Below are positions 4,519 through 35,654 of a stretch of DNA of 64,000 bases, piece after piece. Origin of the DNA: Natrialba magadii ATCC 43099 (GTDB lineage: Archaea; Halobacteriota; Halobacteria; Halobacteriales; Natrialbaceae); NCBI RefSeq assembly GCF_000025625.1, contig NC_013922.1, forward strand, positions 3,534,001 through 3,598,000, given 5' to 3'. Positions within the stretch are counted from its first letter, which is position 1. The number at the start of each line of letters is the position of its first letter. Made by a program: the position numbers and the translations under genes. The notes beneath the pieces are model-generated. The model saw only the letters and a list, made by a program, of their open reading frames with translations, did not search any database and was not told the origin of the DNA.

Positions 4519-5769
4519 ATGGAATACCACGATTCCGAGACGGCGAAGGCAGTTGCGGGCCGTGTAGAGTCCTTCATGGACGAGGTCGTCATCCCGCGCG
4601 AGCGGGAAGCGCTTGCGACGGGCGAGCAGATTCCGATGCACGAAATCGAGGACCTCTGGGAGGAGGCAAAAGAGCGAGACCTCTTCGCTCCGCAGGTCCC
4701 CGAGGAGTACGGCGGTCAGGGACTGGACTTCAGCGATATGCTGCCCTCCTTCGAGCAGGTCGGCCGGTCACTCATCGGTGCGCACGCCATCCGCGCCAAC
4801 GCGCCACAGGAGGGGAACATGCACACCCTCGAGATGGTCGGTACCGAGGAGCAAAAAGAGGAGTACCTCCGGCCGCTCGTCCAGGGGGAGATGACTTCCG
4901 CGTTCGCGATGACAGAGCCTAAACAGGGCGGGGGATCCGATCCGAAGATGCTCCAGAGCACCGCCGTCAAGGACGGCGACGAGTGGGTCATCAACGCTCA
5001 CAAGTGGTGGACCTCGGACGGGCTCGACGCTGACTTCTACCTCCTGATGGCGCGGACCGATCTGGACGCCCACCCCTACGAGGGAACCTCGATCATCCTC
5101 GTTCCGCGGGACGCCGACGGCGTCGAAGTCGTCCGGAACGTTCCCCACCTCGGGGGCCACGGCATCACCGAACGCACCGGCGGCCACGCCGAAATGAAGT
5201 TCGACAACGTTCGCGTGCCCGTCGAGAACACCATCGGCGAGGAGAACGCTGGCTTCCGGATCGCCCAGATGCGTCTCGGCGGCGGTCGACTCACCCACTG
5301 TATGCGCTACTCCGGGATGGCCGAGCGCTCGCTCGACATCGCGAAGGCCTACCTCGCAGAGCGCGAGGCGTTCGGTTCGACCCTGGAAGAGAAACAGGCG
5401 CTTCGCCACCGAATCGCCGACGCCGAAACGCGACTGCACGCCGCCCGGACGATGGTCCGCCACGCCGCGCGCGAACTCGACCGCAGTGACGCACGCATCG
5501 AGGTCGCGATGGCGAAGATGTTCACCGCGAACGTGACGCAGGACACCATCGACCTCGCACTGCAGTGTTGTGGGGGCAACGGCATCGGGAAAGACCTCCC
5601 GATCGCACACTTCTACGAGGCCGTCCGCGCGTTCCGTATCGTCGACGGCGCAGACGAGGTCCACCGCCGCTCGATCGCCCGCTGGGCGTTCGAAGACGTC
5701 GACGAGACCGAGATCGAGAACACACTGCAGTTCGACGAGGACCTGCGGATCGACGACCTGGACGACTGA
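4519..5769 (+). CDS. acyl-CoA dehydrogenase, ACAD10/11-like
   Basis: 416 residues, FAD-dependent acyl-CoA dehydrogenase fold: alpha-beta-alpha with AFAMTEPKQGGGSDPKM around residue 131-147 (FAD/substrate contact), HKWWTSDGLD, and a C-terminal bundle with LQCCGGNGIG. The segment that usually carries the catalytic glutamate (EGT-type) reads FRIVDGADEVHRR, with aspartate in that place, as in the ACAD10/11-like clade. The start is fixed by a TATA box 26 bases upstream. It introduces the alpha-beta double bond in beta-oxidation and sits between the acyl-CoA synthetase and a convergent thiolase. Substrate range is unknown. Confidence 0.9.
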   Translation: MEYHDSETAKAVAGRVESFMDEVVIPREREALATGEQIPMHEIEDLWEEAKERDLFAPQVPEEYGGQGLDFSDMLPSFEQVGRSLIGAHAIRANAPQEGNMHTLEMVGTEEQKEEYLRPLVQGEMTSAFAMTEPKQGGGSDPKMLQSTAVKDGDEWVINAHKWWTSDGLDADFYLLMARTDLDAHPYEGTSIILVPRDADGVEVVRNVPHLGGHGITERTGGHAEMKFDNVRVPVENTIGEENAGFRIAQMRLGGGRLTHCMRYSGMAERSLDIAKAYLAEREAFGSTLEEKQALRHRIADAETRLHAARTMVRHAARELDRSDARIEVAMAKMFTANVTQDTIDLALQCCGGNGIGKDLPIAHFYEAVRAFRIVDGADEVHRRSIARWAFEDVDETEIENTLQFDEDLRIDDLDD

Positions 5770-21843: not shown

Positions 21844-23213
21844 GCAGTCGTCCAGCAGCAGTCCTCGCGGTCGTCGCCTTGCTCGTCCTGAGTAGTTTCG
21901 GCGGCGTCGCACAGGTCGGTGACTCGGCGTCGACGCCGTCACCGAACGCCTCGGCGACAAACGCGCCGCCAGCTGACAGCTACGTCATCGAACAGGACGG
22001 CTTCTGCCAGCAGATCGAGCCGCTCTCGAGTGGCGGCACGGTCGAGTCCTTCTACGACTACCGTAACCACGAGACGCACCCAGAGGGAGTCGACCGGATG
22101 TATAGCTCCTACGGCACTGAGCACCTGCAGGAGGACGACACGAGCATCCTGTTCCTCCACGAAGGAACCGATGGGGTGAGTCTCGTGACGGTTCACGACC
22201 GAGTCGATGGGAACTCCTCTGGCGGCGTGGCGACGTTCGACATCGTCGGTCTCCCGGCGGAGTCCGAGTGGGTCGTCCAGAACGACAACTACACGGGCGA
22301 GACAAACATGGCTGAGTGGTACAGCGGCGACGGCTGGCTCGGCGCATCGTGGATCTGGGCCGAGGAGCGCACCGACGGCGGTGCGATCAACGGCGGGCTC
22401 AACGACGCGTTCGCGGCGACGATCCATCCGATGTTCAACGAGGATGCAGAGCACTACGACAACGACGACCTCTACGATCCCGACTACCACGACGACGGCG
22501 AAATCGACGACTGGGAGATCCTCTCCGGCGATGCGGACAACCCGGACCGAACAGATATTCCATCGCTCGACGAGCCGGTAACGATCCGTACCGGAACGTG
22601 TGATGGCCCGTCAGTTTCGTACGAGCTTCTCGGTAGTGGGAGCGGTCCAGACGGCGGCGACGCCGATGCAGGTGTTGCAGCCGCCATCGAAAACGCAAAC
22701 CCCGACGACCAGATACACCTGCAACCGACGGCAGGCTCCGGTGACGAGGTCCGATTCGACGACGTGTACGTGAGCGGCCTCGATGACGACACGGCCGTCA
22801 CGTTCGAAAACAACCATCCCGACGACCTGCCAGACACTCCGGACGACGTCCCCGGACTCGGTTCGCTGGCCGTTGCCGGCGAACCCGCACTCGAGAACGT
22901 CTCGGCGACGGTGACGTTCACCGTGGACGAGACAGCACTCGAGGAGCACGGTATTGCGCCAGAAGACGTCTCCCTCTACGAGCAGGAAATGAACGAGTCG
23001 GCGTGGAACGAGTCGACGACGGAGTATCAGGGCTCCTCGGGATCGTCCCACGAGTACGCGGCGTCGGTCGAGTCACTCGAGGGGCTGACGGTTGCACAGG
23101 CCCAACCGGAGCCTGAATCAGGACTGTCGGCGATGCCCGGCTTCGGTGGTCTCGGTTCGCTCGTGGCGATCGCAGCGCTCATCGGCCTGCTCGCGGTACG
23201 CTATCGCGAGTAG
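21840..23213 (+). CDS. secreted surface protein with PGF-type C-terminus
   Basis: 457 residues. A Sec signal peptide (AAVLAVVALLVLSSFGGVAQ) is followed by a Thr/Ser/Pro linker and an acidic extracellular domain with many Asn-x-Ser/Thr N-glycosylation sites (for example NASAT, NYTGE, NVSAT, NESTT). The C-terminus reads MPGFGGLGSLVAIAALIGLL then AVRYRE: a PGF motif, one membrane helix and a basic end, the recognition signal of archaeosortase A. Residues ~100-230 have a His/Trp-rich pattern of unknown function. The start overlaps the deacetylase stop, so both are made together, suggesting a joint job at the cell surface. Confidence 0.85.
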   Translation: MSSRPAAVLAVVALLVLSSFGGVAQVGDSASTPSPNASATNAPPADSYVIEQDGFCQQIEPLSSGGTVESFYDYRNHETHPEGVDRMYSSYGTEHLQEDDTSILFLHEGTDGVSLVTVHDRVDGNSSGGVATFDIVGLPAESEWVVQNDNYTGETNMAEWYSGDGWLGASWIWAEERTDGGAINGGLNDAFAATIHPMFNEDAEHYDNDDLYDPDYHDDGEIDDWEILSGDADNPDRTDIPSLDEPVTIRTGTCDGPSVSYELLGSGSGPDGGDADAGVAAAIENANPDDQIHLQPTAGSGDEVRFDDVYVSGLDDDTAVTFENNHPDDLPDTPDDVPGLGSLAVAGEPALENVSATVTFTVDETALEEHGIAPEDVSLYEQEMNESAWNESTTEYQGSSGSSHEYAASVESLEGLTVAQAQPEPESGLSAMPGFGGLGSLVAIAALIGLLAVRYRE

Positions 23214-23302
23214 GGACTACAAACTCGATTTTACCAGGACGGTGGCTTCTGGGCCAGAACTCATTTTCGGACGTCTGTTGCTGACTGTCCGTTTCCGGTT
23301 GC

Positions 23303-23641
23303 TCAGTCGCTTCCATTTGTACTGTCCGTGACAACCCGGTAGAGGTGGGCGGTGTCCATCTCACCATTCAATTCTCGAATTGCAGCCTGCCAATCGTCGA
23401 CGCTCGCGAAGCCAGAGAGTTTTCGATAGGACTCGAGTGCCCCCGTGTCTGTTGGATCGACGGCGTCGATATGCTCGACCCGGCAATCACCCTCTTTCGG
23501 CCCCGTCCGAGATGTTCGCCACCAGGTGTCGCCGGTCGTGCGCTCGGACGCGCGGAAGGTGACGACCTCGCCGTGGTTCTCGAGCTGTGCCCGAGCGGTC
23601 GCGTCGGCAAAGACGATCGGTCCGACGTGTGCGTTGCTCAT
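23303..23641 (-). CDS. small ASCH-like protein
   Basis: 112 residues. HGEVVTFRASERTTGDTWWR, then KEGDCRVEHIDAV and KLSGFASVDDWQAAI resemble the ASCH/PUA-like fold pattern (TfR..Gd.W....SGF.s..W), which binds RNA or nucleotides; this is judged by eye. Proteins of this type occur in haloarchaeal proviruses and plasmids. Its ATG overlaps the stop of the gene fragment upstream (ATGA), so the two once formed one unit. It lies at the left side of the low-G+C island. Confidence 0.5.
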   Translation of the reverse strand: MSNAHVGPIVFADATARAQLENHGEVVTFRASERTTGDTWWRTSRTGPKEGDCRVEHIDAVDPTDTGALESYRKLSGFASVDDWQAAIRELNGEMDTAHLYRVVTDSTNGSD

Positions 23642-23911
23642 TCGGACTCACCCATGAACGAATCGACGGTCGTCTGTTTCTCTTTGTAGACGTGTGGCGT
23701 CACTTCGATCAACGGCGCGTCTACGTCGGGATCGACACACACCCACAGATCGAACTCGAGCTCCTCGCTCACGTTGGCGGGGTCGATCTCTAGGTGTTCG
23801 AGGCCGGCCGCCGGGATTGTCACTGACTTGGTCCCGCCGGCACCGAAGCGGTTGATCGCTCGCGTCAGCTCGTGTTTTCGACTGTTGATCGCCGTTTTGG
23901 TGTCGCCGATA
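23638..23911 (-). pseudogene. 5'-truncated gene at island edge
   Basis: The frame reads GDTKTAINSRKHELTRAINR, FGAGGTKSVTIPAAGLEHLE and on to FMGESE, with typical G/C-ending codons, back to about 23911. There it meets A+T-rich DNA and a TAA without any ATG, GTG or TTG start. The only internal start is GTG 23823, which would discard 30 coding-looking residues. The simplest reading is that insertion of the low-G+C segment removed the 5' end. A helix with Arg/Lys residues precedes a beta-rich half. Family unknown. Confidence 0.55.
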
Positions 23912-23959
23912 GTATTATTTTATTGGTGTGAATTTCAATAAGTAGTTTAGACAACTCAA

Positions 23960-25183
23960 TCATTTGATTTTCTGGAACTTCTCAGTATGAGTCCGTTCAA
24001 TCTTATTTAGAGTGTCAACAAACTCTTCCGGATTCTTTAGGAATCTTATGCGAATATTTTCGTTGGAGGATTGGCTAATTATAACAGATGGCTTGAGAAA
24101 GGGGAGAATTTTGACAATAAATCCACTATCTTTCGCTATAGTAGTAATTTCTTCCGAGTGTATTACCCACTGTGGTTCCTTCAGGTAGTTGTCATACCCA
24201 ATAAGTATATCATCATACACTCGGTATTCCATGTTCGAATTTCCTAGCCATATAATATAATTACTAAGAAGTAGTATAATAAGATAGGATGCAAGAAATA
24301 GAATGAGTATGCTATTTGAATGGAGAATCCTAGTAGAGGATGTTAGGAGAATGATGGCTAACACAGACCACATGAAAACAAAAGAACCAATCTGGAGCAT
24401 ATATAATATACTAACATAAAGGCTAGCCCAACTCCATAGTGCTCTGTTGTCTGTATCAAAAGTGTAGTTCGGCTTATTAGCTGGCATGGGTATGTGTTCT
24501 GTCGTATTATTGCTAGTTGGGTCAAAGGTAAGCGGCCACGGTCCGATTCCAGCCTCCCGGAAATCAAACAAGATCTTCGGGACTAAGGCTAATATTAATG
24601 CAGCGGCGACAGTGTCTGGTGATTGTGGAATGATGAATACTATAGCAATGCAGCCGACGAGTCCTGAATAGATGATTTCGCGTCGACGAACCGTCACTAC
24701 CGATGCCTGTTTGTAAATCCCGGTAGCCTCCCAGATAGCAATGATCGATATATGCTTGAGTATAAAAATAGGAATTAACAGTATAAAGGAACTATCAACA
24801 CGGCCTGTAATGGCTCCGAAGAGTACTGGTATGGCTGCTCCGCCAATTACAACAAACGCAATCCAAAATCTTAGAACATAGGGGATGTTTTTGGGATATA
24901 TGTTTGGTATCTTGGGGTGTATTTGAAAATACCCTCGCTTATCTAGTAAACCCTCATACCATAAAGTAAAATCATACAGACCTGTTGGGGGATTAATAGT
25001 GTTGTCCGGTGGCCTAGCAGTGAATAGCCTTTCAACTGTAATTCGACTGATTCCGAGGAAAGTTTCTATTGCGAAAAGAATCGCGATAGTTGCTGGGTTC
25101 CAGTTGAGTGTAATTGTACCGACAACAATCGCTATGTTGGTGACAAGAATCAGTAGAAAGAGGACTTTCTTCTTATTAGACAC
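23960..25183 (-). CDS. DUF6498-like membrane protein
   Basis: 407 residues with about nine hydrophobic helices. The N-terminus (LFLLILVTNIAIVVGTI, then FAIETFLGISRITVERLFTA) follows the layout of haloarchaeal DUF6498 membrane proteins. The last ~90 residues (MEYRVYDDILIGYDNYLKEP to KNPEEFVDTLNKI) look like the PH-like beta domain seen at the end of those proteins. Codons are A/T-rich and Ile, Asn and Lys are frequent, unlike every other gene here, indicating transfer from another lineage. It lies 85 bases downstream of the halocin-like gene on the same strand; an immunity or export role is only a guess. Confidence 0.6.
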   Translation of the reverse strand: MSNKKKVLFLLILVTNIAIVVGTITLNWNPATIAILFAIETFLGISRITVERLFTARPPDNTINPPTGLYDFTLWYEGLLDKRGYFQIHPKIPNIYPKNIPYVLRFWIAFVVIGGAAIPVLFGAITGRVDSSFILLIPIFILKHISIIAIWEATGIYKQASVVTVRRREIIYSGLVGCIAIVFIIPQSPDTVAAALILALVPKILFDFREAGIGPWPLTFDPTSNNTTEHIPMPANKPNYTFDTDNRALWSWASLYVSILYMLQIGSFVFMWSVLAIILLTSSTRILHSNSILILFLASYLIILLLSNYIIWLGNSNMEYRVYDDILIGYDNYLKEPQWVIHSEEITTIAKDSGFIVKILPFLKPSVIISQSSNENIRIRFLKNPEEFVDTLNKIERTHTEKFQKIK

Positions 25184-25268
25184 TGTAGTATAGAGAAATT
25201 AGTAGGAAATTTAAACGTTTTCATCACACAATTCTCAAAACGCGTGTGATTTTCCAAAGTAAGAGACG

Positions 25269-25556
25269 TTAAATTATATGTCTGGTTGAATAGTAACAAA
25301 CACTCATATCTGTACCACAGACTTCGTGTATTATCCATTCTGCGAGATTTCCAAATGAATCTACATACTCAAATATTTCTCCTACAAAGGCAGTACAGAC
25401 GATTGCTCCCCACCATAAAGCAAAGCCTGCAGTAGCACAGATTACGCCAGCGGCGACGTCGTCAACCATCGTACCTATGAGAGGTCCAACAGCAGTACAA
25501 TCTGCACACCCATAATTCTCGTCTGCAAGTTCGTCATATACTCCTGCTTCACCCAA
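25269..25556 (-). CDS. halocin-C8-like cysteine-rich peptide
   Basis: 95 residues from a TTG codon. The pattern is Cys17-AD-Cys20, a small-residue/Gly-rich stretch, Cys40, thirteen residues (ATAGFALWWGAIV), Cys54-TAFVGEIF, then Cys80 and Cys87. Mature halocin C8 has CSAC, then a Cys-thirteen-Cys-LGFVEIV segment with the same FVxx context and a closing Cys pair. Halocin C8 is cut from the end of a much longer precursor with a Tat leader and immunity domain. Here the frame stays open about 40 codons upstream without a start, so either the start is unusual or the leader is lost at the island border. Confidence 0.6.
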   Translation of the reverse strand: MGEAGVYDELADENYGCADCTAVGPLIGTMVDDVAAGVICATAGFALWWGAIVCTAFVGEIFEYVDSFGNLAEWIIHEVCGTDMSVCYYSTRHII

Positions 25557-25678
25557 TTCAACAGCAGTCTTTGCAAATTCTAGATTCAGCCGTCTCAGGA
25601 ATCCCCATATACCCGTTCTAGGGATCTTATCCTTTATCTGAGAAGACGCAGCTACCCACCGATGAACTGTGATTGTGA

Positions 25679-26830
25679 TCAGTCGCTTCCCACACCCATC
25701 GACTCCGATCGCTCCGGACGAGCGTGTTGGCCGAGCTGCCGGACCGACTCGAGTTCGTCGACGAAGCCGTCGACGAGTGCCACGTCGACGAGGAGATCTG
25801 AGAGAGAAACCGTGTCGGCGAGGAACTCGTCGCGGCGGCGTTGGTAGAGGTCGTCGACAGCCGTGTCGGCTCCATCCGCGACATCGCCGGTCGCGCCGCC
25901 ACTGAACAGCGTCTCGATCTCGTCGCAGATCGCGTCCGGCGATGCGACGTTTCGGATGAGCCCGCGCTTTTCGAGTTCGACGAAGTTCCCCATGTCGTCT
26001 TCGCCGACGAAGGAGTTCGAGCGAATCGCGGGCGTCCCGAGCAGCGCAGCCTCGGTGACCATCGTCTGGGTGTCTGCGACGAGCAGGTCGGCCGCCGAAA
26101 GCGCGTCGTGAAGCAGTGCCGGGTGCAGCTCGAACGAGCGGGCGGGCAGTCCCTCGAGGTTGGCGGTGTCACCTTCGTCCGAGACGAGCACGGTCACCTC
26201 CTCGGCCAACTGCTCGATGATTCGCCGGCGCTCGGTTCCCGTAATTCCCTGCTTGCCGACGTCGTGCTGGGAGCCGAAGGCGTTGAGCCGAAGAATAGCA
26301 AACGGCTCGTCCGCCCCGAGATCGAGTGCATCCCGAACGTCGGGATTCGGCTCGTACACGTCCGGATGGAGGTACGCACACTCCTTGAGCCCGTCAAAAA
26401 CGTAGTGGTGCTCGCCCAGATCCTTGCGGAAGGTGTTCGGTGTTAGAACGGTGCGGGCGAACGGCGTCGAAATCGCGTGATCGAACGCCGCCGGCTCAGA
26501 ATCGATCAGCAACACCGTCGGAGTTCGCAGGATGGCACCCGTGTGGGCCGCATACCCACCCATCCCGAAGATCAGATCAGGATCGAACCGTCGTGCCAGC
26601 CGAATCGCCCGCACGTAGTGGGCCGGCAGACGGCTCACGAGTGACCCCTTCGTGGTCCCGCAGGCACCGTAGACGTCGTAGGGCAGGTCGTGCCACTCGA
26701 GTAGCTCGACGGTGCAGGTGTACTCGCGAGCGAGGATCCGAACGTCGTGGCCCCGGTCCTCGAGGTCGCGAACGACGTGTTTGTACAGATGGACGTGTGC
26801 CGGCGTGTTCGTGAAGAACAGGAATTTCAT
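25679..26830 (-). CDS. DUF354 glycosyltransferase-like protein
   Basis: 383 residues of the DUF354 group, GT-B fold similar to UDP-GlcNAc 2-epimerase and MurG-type enzymes. The first strand and loop are KFLFFTNTPAHVHLYKHVVR, then DLIFGMGGYAAHTGAI. The second domain has the SDEGDTANLEGLPARSFELH segment and LVADTQTMVTEAALLGTPAI, the expected sugar-nucleotide region. It probably handles a sugar nucleotide for the surface glycan. It is divergent from the alpha/alpha-barrel gene and ends at the border of the low-G+C island. Confidence 0.85.
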   Translation of the reverse strand: MKFLFFTNTPAHVHLYKHVVRDLEDRGHDVRILAREYTCTVELLEWHDLPYDVYGACGTTKGSLVSRLPAHYVRAIRLARRFDPDLIFGMGGYAAHTGAILRTPTVLLIDSEPAAFDHAISTPFARTVLTPNTFRKDLGEHHYVFDGLKECAYLHPDVYEPNPDVRDALDLGADEPFAILRLNAFGSQHDVGKQGITGTERRRIIEQLAEEVTVLVSDEGDTANLEGLPARSFELHPALLHDALSAADLLVADTQTMVTEAALLGTPAIRSNSFVGEDDMGNFVELEKRGLIRNVASPDAICDEIETLFSGGATGDVADGADTAVDDLYQRRRDEFLADTVSLSDLLVDVALVDGFVDELESVRQLGQHARPERSESMGVGSD

Positions 26831-33340: not shown

Positions 33341-35026
33341 CTACAGCGCGTCGTACTCGACGGAGACGTTCGCGTTGCCTGCGAGCCGGAAGTTCTCGAT
33401 GTCGCCGCTGAACTCGTAGGCGTCACAGGCGTTGGCGATCGTTCCGGAGACGGTCGAACCTGAGATCGAACCGTTCTGGGAGCCCAGGTACGGCGTGTGC
33501 CGGACGTCGCCAGTAACGTCGAACGAGAACGTGGTCTCGCCGCTGGTGCCACAGGCGTCGATGACGATGACGTTTGTGCGGTCGTCCGATGGCTCGTCTG
33601 GTTCGTCAGACTCGTCACTGTCGTCACCCTCGTCCGTATCGTCATCGTCCGGCTCGCCGCCGGTCTGTTCGATGATTTCGTCCGGATCGAGACGCTCGCC
33701 GTCGAGTTCGACCCACATCACGTCGGGCTGGCCGATCTCGATCGACGTAATGGTTCCATCGACCCGGAACGCGTCACCGTGACCGCCGCCGGTCACACCG
33801 CCGGCGTGCCAGCCGTCGTCGGTCTCTTCGACGAAGTCCTCGGAGGTGTACGTCCCACCTTCGATGCGTCCGCCAGACGGCGTTGGGTCGGGAGCTTCTG
33901 CGAACCCAACCGGTCCGTCGGCGGTGAACTCGTAGCCAGCGTATCGTGCGTCGGGTTCGGTGACGAACGAGAGGAGGTGACCGTCAGCCGGTTCCTCATT
34001 TTCCGCGTCGTCCTCGTCGTCCGCGTCGTCCTCGTCGCTGCCATCACCTGGCCGTCCTGACCCTGACGAGCCGGATGCGGCCTCTTCTGCGCTCAGCGGA
34101 ACGCCCTCAACCTCGCTCGGTTCAGTCCGCTGTGGTGTTCCGGATGACGAACCGTGAATCGCAGCGCCGCGATTGTCGTCAGTTCCGTAGCGGGTGTTTG
34201 TAACCGTCACTTCGGCGTTCTGGCCCTTCACCCAGTCCGGTGCACCGCATCGGACGTCTGCGTGTGCCGAGCCGGAGATATCGCAGTCTTTGACTGCCGT
34301 GTGCTCGTAGTAACCCCAGAAGCCCTTGTCACAGTCGACCACGACGCAGTTCTCGACGATCGATCCGTCGGTACCCACGCGGAAGCCGGCCGCACGGGAG
34401 TTTCGCGCGTAGGAATCTTTGATCACGACCGGGCCGCCACCGCCTGCACCGCTTGGGTGTCGCGAGGAGTCACCAGGGTTGCTGGCGTAGATCGAGTTGT
34501 CCGGGCAGTTCTGAATGTTGACGTTCCGAATTTCGAGATCGCCGGCGTGGCCGTTGGCCACGTTGATGCCGGTGATCCCGGGATAGGTGTTGTCGTTCTC
34601 GCTACCCATGAAGTAGACGTTCTCGATCAGTCCACTCGCGTTCGGGCTGTTCACCTGGCAGATAATCGCGTCTTCCTTGTCCGTGCTATCCCAGTTGCCG
34701 CGGAAACCGACGTTGCGAATCTCCCAGTTGTCCGCGAGCGCACGAATGTGGAACTTCGCGTTCGATGCCGTGATGTCGATCAGGACGTTCGAGAAGGTCT
34801 CGCCGTCGCTCAGATGGACCGTCTCGGTCTGGCCTGCGCCAACTTCGATCACGTCGTAATCCTCGGAGGCCGCACCGACCCCGGACATCGCGACAGCTGC
34901 TGCCGCCGAGCCGACGAGGCCGATGTAGCTTCGCCGACCAAGTAGGCTGTCATTACCGGCTGAAACGCCGTCTGCTGGTTTTTGATCGCTAGATCCGTCG
35001 CCTTCCAATACCGTATCGCGTGCCAT
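33341..35026 (-). CDS. Tat-exported right-handed beta-helix protein
   Basis: 561 residues. A Tat signal (LLGRRSYIGLVGSAAAAVA) follows a 28-residue leader. Residues ~75-275 repeat short strands such as IENVYFMGSEN, GDLEIRNVNIQNC and VIKDSYARNSRAAGF, a parallel beta-helix of the pectate-lyase type that binds or cuts polysaccharide. After a Gly/Ser/Asp linker a C-terminal half has repeated Asp-rich linkers and a VIVIDACGTSGETTFSFDVTG segment. It is probably attached to the surface glycan, but no catalytic residues can be assigned with confidence. A TATA-like site lies 29 bases upstream. Confidence 0.8.
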   Translation of the reverse strand: MARDTVLEGDGSSDQKPADGVSAGNDSLLGRRSYIGLVGSAAAAVAMSGVGAASEDYDVIEVGAGQTETVHLSDGETFSNVLIDITASNAKFHIRALADNWEIRNVGFRGNWDSTDKEDAIICQVNSPNASGLIENVYFMGSENDNTYPGITGINVANGHAGDLEIRNVNIQNCPDNSIYASNPGDSSRHPSGAGGGGPVVIKDSYARNSRAAGFRVGTDGSIVENCVVVDCDKGFWGYYEHTAVKDCDISGSAHADVRCGAPDWVKGQNAEVTVTNTRYGTDDNRGAAIHGSSSGTPQRTEPSEVEGVPLSAEEAASGSSGSGRPGDGSDEDDADDEDDAENEEPADGHLLSFVTEPDARYAGYEFTADGPVGFAEAPDPTPSGGRIEGGTYTSEDFVEETDDGWHAGGVTGGGHGDAFRVDGTITSIEIGQPDVMWVELDGERLDPDEIIEQTGGEPDDDDTDEGDDSDESDEPDEPSDDRTNVIVIDACGTSGETTFSFDVTGDVRHTPYLGSQNGSISGSTVSGTIANACDAYEFSGDIENFRLAGNANVSVEYDAL

Positions 35027-35050
35027 ACAGTCAGGGATTTTGAAGTCAGG

Positions 35051-35060
35051 ATCATAAACT
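35051..35060 (-). promoter_or_regulatory. TATA-like box of beta-helix gene
   Basis: Minus-strand AGTTTATGAT is centred about 29 bases before the ATG at 35026 in a strongly A+T-rich stretch, consistent with a leaderless start. Confidence 0.5.
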
Positions 35061-35654
35061 TTCCGTTTATCCTAATTTAGACAGACAATACAGTCAATTT
35101 CTCGTGATATAATATATAGAATCCTATGAGTGTCTATTCACTAGTTTTTATAGAAAACATATAGACATTCAGTTGCAGTCTACCCGGCCATCAGGGGATC
35201 GGTTCTCAGTCCGCCCTTCTCCTTCGAAATCGAACGCATTCACGGAATCGAGATAGTATAGGTTCTGAATAGATCTGTCACTCGCCACGTTATGCACGCT
35301 GATTTCCAGCGGAAACTACTTCTAGACGAGTTCGGCTCGTGGCTGGGTGAACGACACTCGAGTACCCCCACGCGCACTCGGCGGTCAGCGAGATGGAGCC
35401 AGCCCGTTTGGCTCACGTGGTGCGGTGCCCGGCTGATCCGCGGCGACACACCGCTGTCCCGTCTCATCGCGGCAAACTGGACGGAAGCACTGAACGGGGA
35501 CGGGAGAATCGCGAGAACGAGGGGAAGGTCGAGGATGAGAACGAGGGGAAGGTCGAGGATGAAAACGAGGGAAAGGGCACGGACGAGAAAGACGAGGATG
35601 AGGATGAGGATGAGGATAAGGACGAGGATGAGGGAAAGAACGAACTGCGGTGAC
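35061..35654. other. gap with acidic-repeat DNA
   Basis: About 590 bases between the beta-helix promoter and the flippase stop. The first part (35070-35180) is strongly A+T rich. From 35502 to 35640 G/A-rich repeats form; frames through the gap read Arg- or Leu/Ile-rich protein without family signs, so I see no gene. It may be a gene remnant. Confidence 0.55.
35502..35640. repeat. G/A-rich 21-bp and 6-bp repeats
   Basis: Units related to GAGGGGAAGGTCGAGGATGA recur about every 24 bases, followed by a run of GAGGAT six-base units. In one plus-strand frame the array reads Glu/Asp/Lys repeats, but no gene context supports it. Confidence 0.8.

What the first reader, a model, noticed from the sequence alone, without database searches (positions are those of the whole stretch)
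25269..25640. Divergent halocin-C8-like peptide without a visible leader
The 95-residue product keeps a CxxC start (Cys17/Cys20), a Cys40-13-Cys54 spacing followed by xxFV, and a closing Cys pair, matching the mature end of halocin C8, but shows six cysteines, not ten, and a WW pair in the loop. The frame is open about 40 codons upstream with no start codon, so the Tat leader and immunity part of known precursors are missing or encoded elsewhere. It could be a new short class of microhalocin or a stranded C-terminal fragment.
Basis: partly seen in the sequence, partly recalled or inferred. Interest (0 to 1): 0.75.

Follow-up and report, generated by a model that had tools for sequence, protein, structure and literature searches.

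The report
Headless halocin tip beside immunity gene
The short cysteine-rich reading frame is almost certainly the cut-off tail of an archaeal antimicrobial protein, left next to an intact membrane-protein gene that probably protects cells against it; comparison with other genomes points to a little-described two-gene branch of the halocin C8 family.

Summary
The six-cysteine reading frame is real. It lies on the minus strand, and its similarity to halocin C8 is real but distant. It is not a stand-alone short halocin. Same-genus genomes lack window 23266-25637, and homology to long precursors (about 670-700 aa, most with an RR Tat-like leader) starts at the edge of that segment: the leader and most of the precursor are missing and no start codon replaces them. 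The next gene, 23960-25183(-), is an intact 407-aa polytopic membrane protein, distantly DUF6498-like. Among 53 halocin-C8-like loci compared, the long-precursor class (6-8 Cys) has such a gene directly downstream in 16 of 18; the HalC8-like short class (about 10 Cys) in 0 of 35. Five close relatives of the membrane gene stand without a halocin; one (Halobacterium salinarum DSM 3754) sits where a related genome still has the precursor. Best reading: a toxin-immunity pair whose toxin was beheaded while the immunity gene was kept. Two other loci show the same headless state. The immunity role is inferred, not shown.

The parts
25269..25640 (-). Headless C-terminal tip (123 codons + stop) of a long halocin-C8-like precursor; no start codon of its own
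   Evidence: homologous to the C-terminus of the G113, G322 and L143 frames, linker included
25296..25508 (-). Six-Cys mature-peptide-like region (CxxC to closing Cys); 8 extra residues follow up to the stop
25509..25640 (-). Conserved linker before the CxxC; contains the only TTG (25554-25556)
23960..25183 (-). Intact 407-aa DUF6498-like polytopic membrane protein with PH-like C-terminal domain; candidate immunity protein
25208..25215 (-). TATA-like TTTAAATT starting 32 nt before the GTG of the membrane gene; possible own promoter
   Evidence: Sequence seen; function inferred
23266..25637 (.). Foreign segment absent from two same-genus genomes (G223, G324); A+T-rich from about 23900 on
23641..23910 (-). 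Second scrap in the segment: C-terminal part of a plasmid-type gene cut at its 5' side
   Evidence: matches residues 65-148 of a Natrinema pallidum plasmid protein
23303..23641 (-). 112-aa ORF in the same segment, no family found
25679..26830 (-). Host DUF354-type gene that flanks the segment; C-terminus native

Best explanation
The locus is the remnant of a two-gene antimicrobial system. In intact relatives gene 1 encodes a precursor of about 670-700 aa with a Tat-like leader, whose last 65-80 residues are a cysteine-rich halocin-C8-like peptide, presumably released by proteolysis outside the cell. Gene 2, directly downstream, encodes a DUF6498-like polytopic membrane protein that protects the producer. 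Here a horizontally acquired piece holds only the last 123 codons of gene 1 plus all of gene 2. The tip has no start codon and no leader, so it is probably neither made nor exported; gene 2 is intact and may be expressed from its own promoter, giving resistance to halocins of relatives. Shown: homology, truncation at the junction, linkage across genomes, intact frame of gene 2, copies of gene 2 without a toxin. Inferred: proteolytic release (by analogy with halocin C8), immunity, expression, and the selective reason for keeping gene 2. I put the headless reading at about 0.85 and the immunity role at about 0.65.
For: Precursor homology including the linker, ending at the segment edge. No ATG or GTG in the frame. 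DUF6498-like gene directly downstream in 16 of 18 long-class loci and 0 of 35 short-class loci; 8 of 8 among loci first recognised by the tip profile. Membrane gene kept without precursor in H. salinarum DSM 3754 at the locus where G113 has both, dN/dS 0.33 between the two copies; also without a tip in G004, Haloferax mucosum and Haloarchaeobius iranensis. Window membrane protein in a 100/100 clade with these. Two other headless tips beside such genes.
Against: No functional data. Tip and membrane-protein distances do not co-vary (Mantel r=0.07, p=0.35, 7 pairs). Two long-class loci (G130, G124) lack the gene. The wider family is common (118 of 293 genomes), so most members have other roles. 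A weak PF22862 domain, part of the N-terminal half of known precursors, remains in some long precursors, so immunity could still lie there. The tip is still open over 123 codons (chance about 2e-4 at its composition), so the truncation is recent or the frame is still used.
Confidence: 0.68

Rival explanations
1. A new short, leaderless class of microhalocin: the tip is translated from the TTG at 25556 and acts as a stand-alone peptide guarded by the membrane gene.
For: Frame open over 123 codons with all six Cys kept; short frames also in L143 and G205.
Against: TTG lies inside the conserved linker; the three short copies break at different points and share no start; the G205 frame has no start codon at all and a TGA upstream inside the homologous stretch. 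Homology stops at the foreign-segment edge. No export signal.
Confidence: 0.06
2. Pure relic: both the tip and the membrane gene are unused debris in an intergenic spot that collects foreign DNA.
For: A second truncated scrap lies in the same segment; the spot carries different content in each relative; the stop after the last Cys seen in the nearest relatives is lost, giving an 8-aa tail.
Against: The membrane gene is open over 407 codons at about 40% G+C and keeps the residues invariant in its family.
Confidence: 0.18
3. The membrane protein is an exporter, processing or regulatory partner of the long precursor, not an immunity protein.
For: Strict position directly downstream of the long precursors; eight-helix polytopic model with a PH-like domain.
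Against: It is kept in genomes without the precursor, once at the very locus where a relative has both; precursors carry Tat-like leaders and would not need a private exporter.
Confidence: 0.2
4. The Cys pattern is a chance likeness and the frame is not related to halocin C8.
For: TIGR04449 is below its cut-off; identity to canonical tips is only about 17-25%.
Against: Profile and shuffles, E=2e-12 to the G113 precursor, and the conserved gene next door.
Confidence: 0.02

Closest known systems
Halocin C8 (HalC8/ProC8; NCBIfam TIGR04449; Pfam PF22862 Hac8_like_N for the N-terminal domain)
   Same: C-terminal Cys-rich peptide, CxxC start, same 19-13-25 spacing of the shared Cys, FV motif, closing Cys pair
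   Different: Six Cys, not ten; below the TIGR04449 cut-off; no leader or N-terminal part in the window; intact relatives are 650-720 codons, not 283 aa (283 aa and HalI: PMC11509114), and have a separate downstream membrane gene
Long C8-like precursors with DUF6498-like partner
   Same: Tip, linker and partner gene homologous and in the same order
   Different: The window copy has lost about 580 N-terminal residues and any start codon
DUF6498 (Pfam PF20108)
   Same: Several linked homologues pass the model (G103 52.6 bits, G205 33.5 bits)
   Different: The window copy scores 13.7 bits against a cut-off of 23.7; function of the family unknown
Orphan toxin-immunity modules of bacterial polymorphic toxins (from general knowledge)
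   Same: A C-terminal toxin end without its head, followed by an intact immunity-like gene
   Different: Archaeal, disulfide-rich peptide; no long precursor in this genome to recombine with; exchange not shown

Membership tests
Halocin C8-like domain (TIGR04449) | Score above the curated cut-off (24 bits) | tested here: not met
   12.3 bits, profile positions 1-65 of 69
Halocin C8-like domain (TIGR04449) | CxxC start, conserved Cys spacing, closing Cys pair | tested here: met
   2-19-13-25-6 against 2-19-13-25-5 for the shared Cys of L065; six Cys invariant in A2
Halocin C8 (HalC8) | Ten cysteines | tested here: not met
   Six; also six in G113, L143, G205 and G322
Halocin C8 (ProC8) | Tat leader and N-terminal HalI/Hac8_like_N part in the same protein | tested here: not met
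   No start or leader; PF22862 absent from the genome
Halocin C8 | Kills other haloarchaea after release of the C-terminal peptide | not testable with these tools
   Needs expression and assay
Long-precursor C8-like class (defined here) | Tip plus conserved linker plus DUF6498-like gene directly downstream | tested here: met
Long-precursor C8-like class (defined here) | Complete Tat-like precursor of about 670-700 aa | tested here: not met
   Only the last 123 codons remain
DUF6498 (PF20108) | Score above the gathering cut-off (23.7 bits) | tested here: not met
   13.7 bits for the window protein; homologues in its alignment pass
Halocin immunity protein | Protects a sensitive cell from the cognate halocin | not testable with these tools
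   Only genomic association and toxin-less copies

The most novel reading that the evidence does not exclude
Headless tip plus membrane gene is a mobile, exchangeable toxin-immunity cassette of haloarchaea, like the orphan modules of bacterial polymorphic toxins: tips are swapped onto long Tat precursors by recombination, and resistance spreads by the membrane gene alone. The DUF6498-like protein would be a new type of halocin immunity protein, perhaps a resistant copy or decoy of the toxin's own membrane target.
Probability: 0.12. Interest if true: 0.75.

Novelty: new variant of a known kind. Interest (0 to 1): 0.5.

Why it matters
The classic halocin C8 account is that one gene gives both toxin and immunity. 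The relatives found here suggest a second branch: a precursor more than twice as long, a peptide with 6-8 cysteines, and a separate membrane gene directly downstream that probably gives immunity. If so, DUF6498-like proteins gain a first testable function, resistance could spread by gaining one gene, and the six-Cys forms show which cysteines make the minimal core. I found no paper on DUF6498 in the library. A 2019 survey of archaeal antimicrobial peptides and toxins (Makarova et al., mBio, known to me from memory) is not held, so earlier notice of this linkage cannot be excluded.

Tried and rejected
(1) Stand-alone short halocin: rejected on start codons and differing break points. (2) Chance Cys pattern: rejected by profile, shuffles and linkage. 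(3) A missing head elsewhere in the genome: TIGR04449 and PF22862 find nothing in G000. (4) Co-divergence of tip and membrane protein: no signal. (5) Structure of the tip: AlphaFold2 mean pLDDT 57, not usable, so no disulfide reading. (6) Structure of the membrane protein: usable (pLDDT 79), but the PDB search gave only PH/PTB-like matches to its C-terminal domain, E above 0.03. (7) Viral and plasmid relatives: no viral contig; only Halobacterium plasmid copies of the membrane gene at 30%, without a tip. (8) Terminal repeats or target-site duplication at the segment ends: none seen. (9) Known defence families: none in PADLOC. (10) A second profile hit, window 4716-4997(-), is a Ser/Cys-rich frame and looks spurious. 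Failed calls: whole genome as file (10), wrong frames (32, 35, 42, 86).

Full report
WHAT IS THERE. It has six Cys spaced 2-19-13-25-6. The curated model TIGR04449 gives only 12.3 bits against a cut-off of 24. So kinship is real but distant.

THE TIP HAS LOST ITS HEAD. The G113 genome encodes a 699-aa protein with an RR Tat-like leader whose C-terminus matches the window tip and its upstream linker (E=2e-12). In two same-genus genomes (G223, G324) the neighbouring DUF354 gene and its 3' flank align with the window up to 25638-25643. On the other side the common sequence ends near 23217 in G223 and, read by eye, near 23265 in G324, whose DNA joins the two flanks directly. Homology to the precursor starts at that same edge. 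No ATG or GTG exists in the frame; the only TTG is inside the conserved linker. The reading is therefore a precursor cut at its 5' side with the last 123 codons left. TIGR04449 and PF22862 searches find no precursor elsewhere in this genome.

THE INTACT PART IS THE NEXT GENE. Gene 23960-25183(-), 85 nt downstream, encodes 407 aa: about eight long helices plus a PH-like C-terminal domain (model mean pLDDT 79; PDB matches to PH/PTB folds only, E above 0.03; weak bPH_2 hit in the G205 homologue). It is distantly DUF6498-like (window copy 13.7 bits, below cut-off; linked homologues G103 and G205 above it). A TATA-like TTTAAATT starts 32 nt before its GTG and could serve a leaderless transcript; this is inference.

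TWO CLASSES. A profile of tips (A2) searched through 392 genomes separates two classes. Long class: frames mostly of 650-720 codons (G175 427), 6-8 Cys, conserved linker, DUF6498-like gene directly downstream in 16 of 18 loci. Among the eight loci first recognised by the tip profile (G154, G321, G322, G242, G280, G041, G175, G370) it is 8 of 8. Short class: HalC8-like, mostly 260-320 codons and about ten Cys, 0 of 35 within about 1.5 kb. Fisher p is about 1e-11 for all loci and 7e-9 for the eight. Caveats: L143 entered through the membrane gene; genomes are related, so loci are not independent; A2 was made partly from linked loci; the counts were put together by hand.

WHY IMMUNITY. The membrane gene also occurs without a precursor. 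In Halobacterium salinarum DSM 3754 (G064) the flanks of G113's locus are conserved, the precursor is gone and the membrane gene remains (94% nt identity; 26 aa differences; dN/dS 0.33). Haloferax mucosum, Haloarchaeobius iranensis and G004 also have it without a tip. In the tree the window protein is sister to that of Natronolimnohabitans sp. A-GB9 (L143; 96/95) inside a 100/100 clade with G113 and these tip-less copies. Keeping the gene after the toxin is lost is what an immunity gene should do; an exporter or processing factor would not be expected to stay. Against: the wider family is common (118 of 293 genomes) and must have other roles; two long-class loci lack it; tip and membrane-protein distances do not co-vary. 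Nothing here is a functional test.

RECURRENCE. Two further headless tips sit beside the same kind of gene: L143 (open 108 codons before the CxxC, its start overlapping the 5' end of a divergent gene) and G205 (25 codons, no start, a TGA upstream inside the homologous stretch). The break points differ, which argues for repeated loss of the head rather than a designed short gene. In G322 the Tat leader is in another frame than the rest: a sequencing error or another damaged copy.

THE SEGMENT. 23266-25637 is a patchwork. Its left part holds a plasmid-type gene cut at its 5' end (matches residues 65-148 of a Natrinema pallidum plasmid protein), ending at a sharp G+C step near 23900. No terminal repeats were found. 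Relatives hold unrelated content at the same place, so this spot seems to gather foreign DNA.

VERDICT. As a halocin candidate it is a broken one; as a pointer it leads to a long-precursor, separate-immunity branch of the halocin C8 family that can be tested directly.

Noticed in passing
window 33341-35071 (-): A frame with an RR leader-like start and an acidic beta-rich part whose C-terminal repeats resemble the N-terminal domains of the long halocin precursors (best tblastn E 2e-7, G172); probably a shared domain of haloarchaeal secreted proteins.
   Followed up: partly
window 23217-25640; L133, L134, L136: The gap between the secreted-protein gene ending at 23213 and the DUF354 gene holds different content in each same-genus genome: a 159-aa hydrophobic ORF in G223, a frame that looks by eye like an IS605-type TnpB in G324, an alpha/beta hydrolase in G276.
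   Followed up: partly
L103 5124-6698 (-) (G000:C1 about 2.276 Mb): The same genome has a second, unlinked 524-aa DUF6498-like protein in the large housekeeping-like part of the tree.
   Followed up: no
L188 (G113) against L187 (G064, H. salinarum DSM 3754): Natural gain or loss of a whole precursor gene with the membrane gene kept; break points about 105 bp before the membrane gene and near the upstream gene.
   Followed up: yes
L180 (G322): Six-Cys long precursor whose Tat leader lies in another frame than the rest: frameshift or sequencing error.
   Followed up: no
L107 (G130), L108 (G124): Two long-class precursors of 8 Cys without a DUF6498-like neighbour; how they are guarded is unexplained.
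   Followed up: no
L097 4629-5918 and 6589-7932 (+) (G118): Two DUF6498-like genes in a row behind one long precursor.
   Followed up: no
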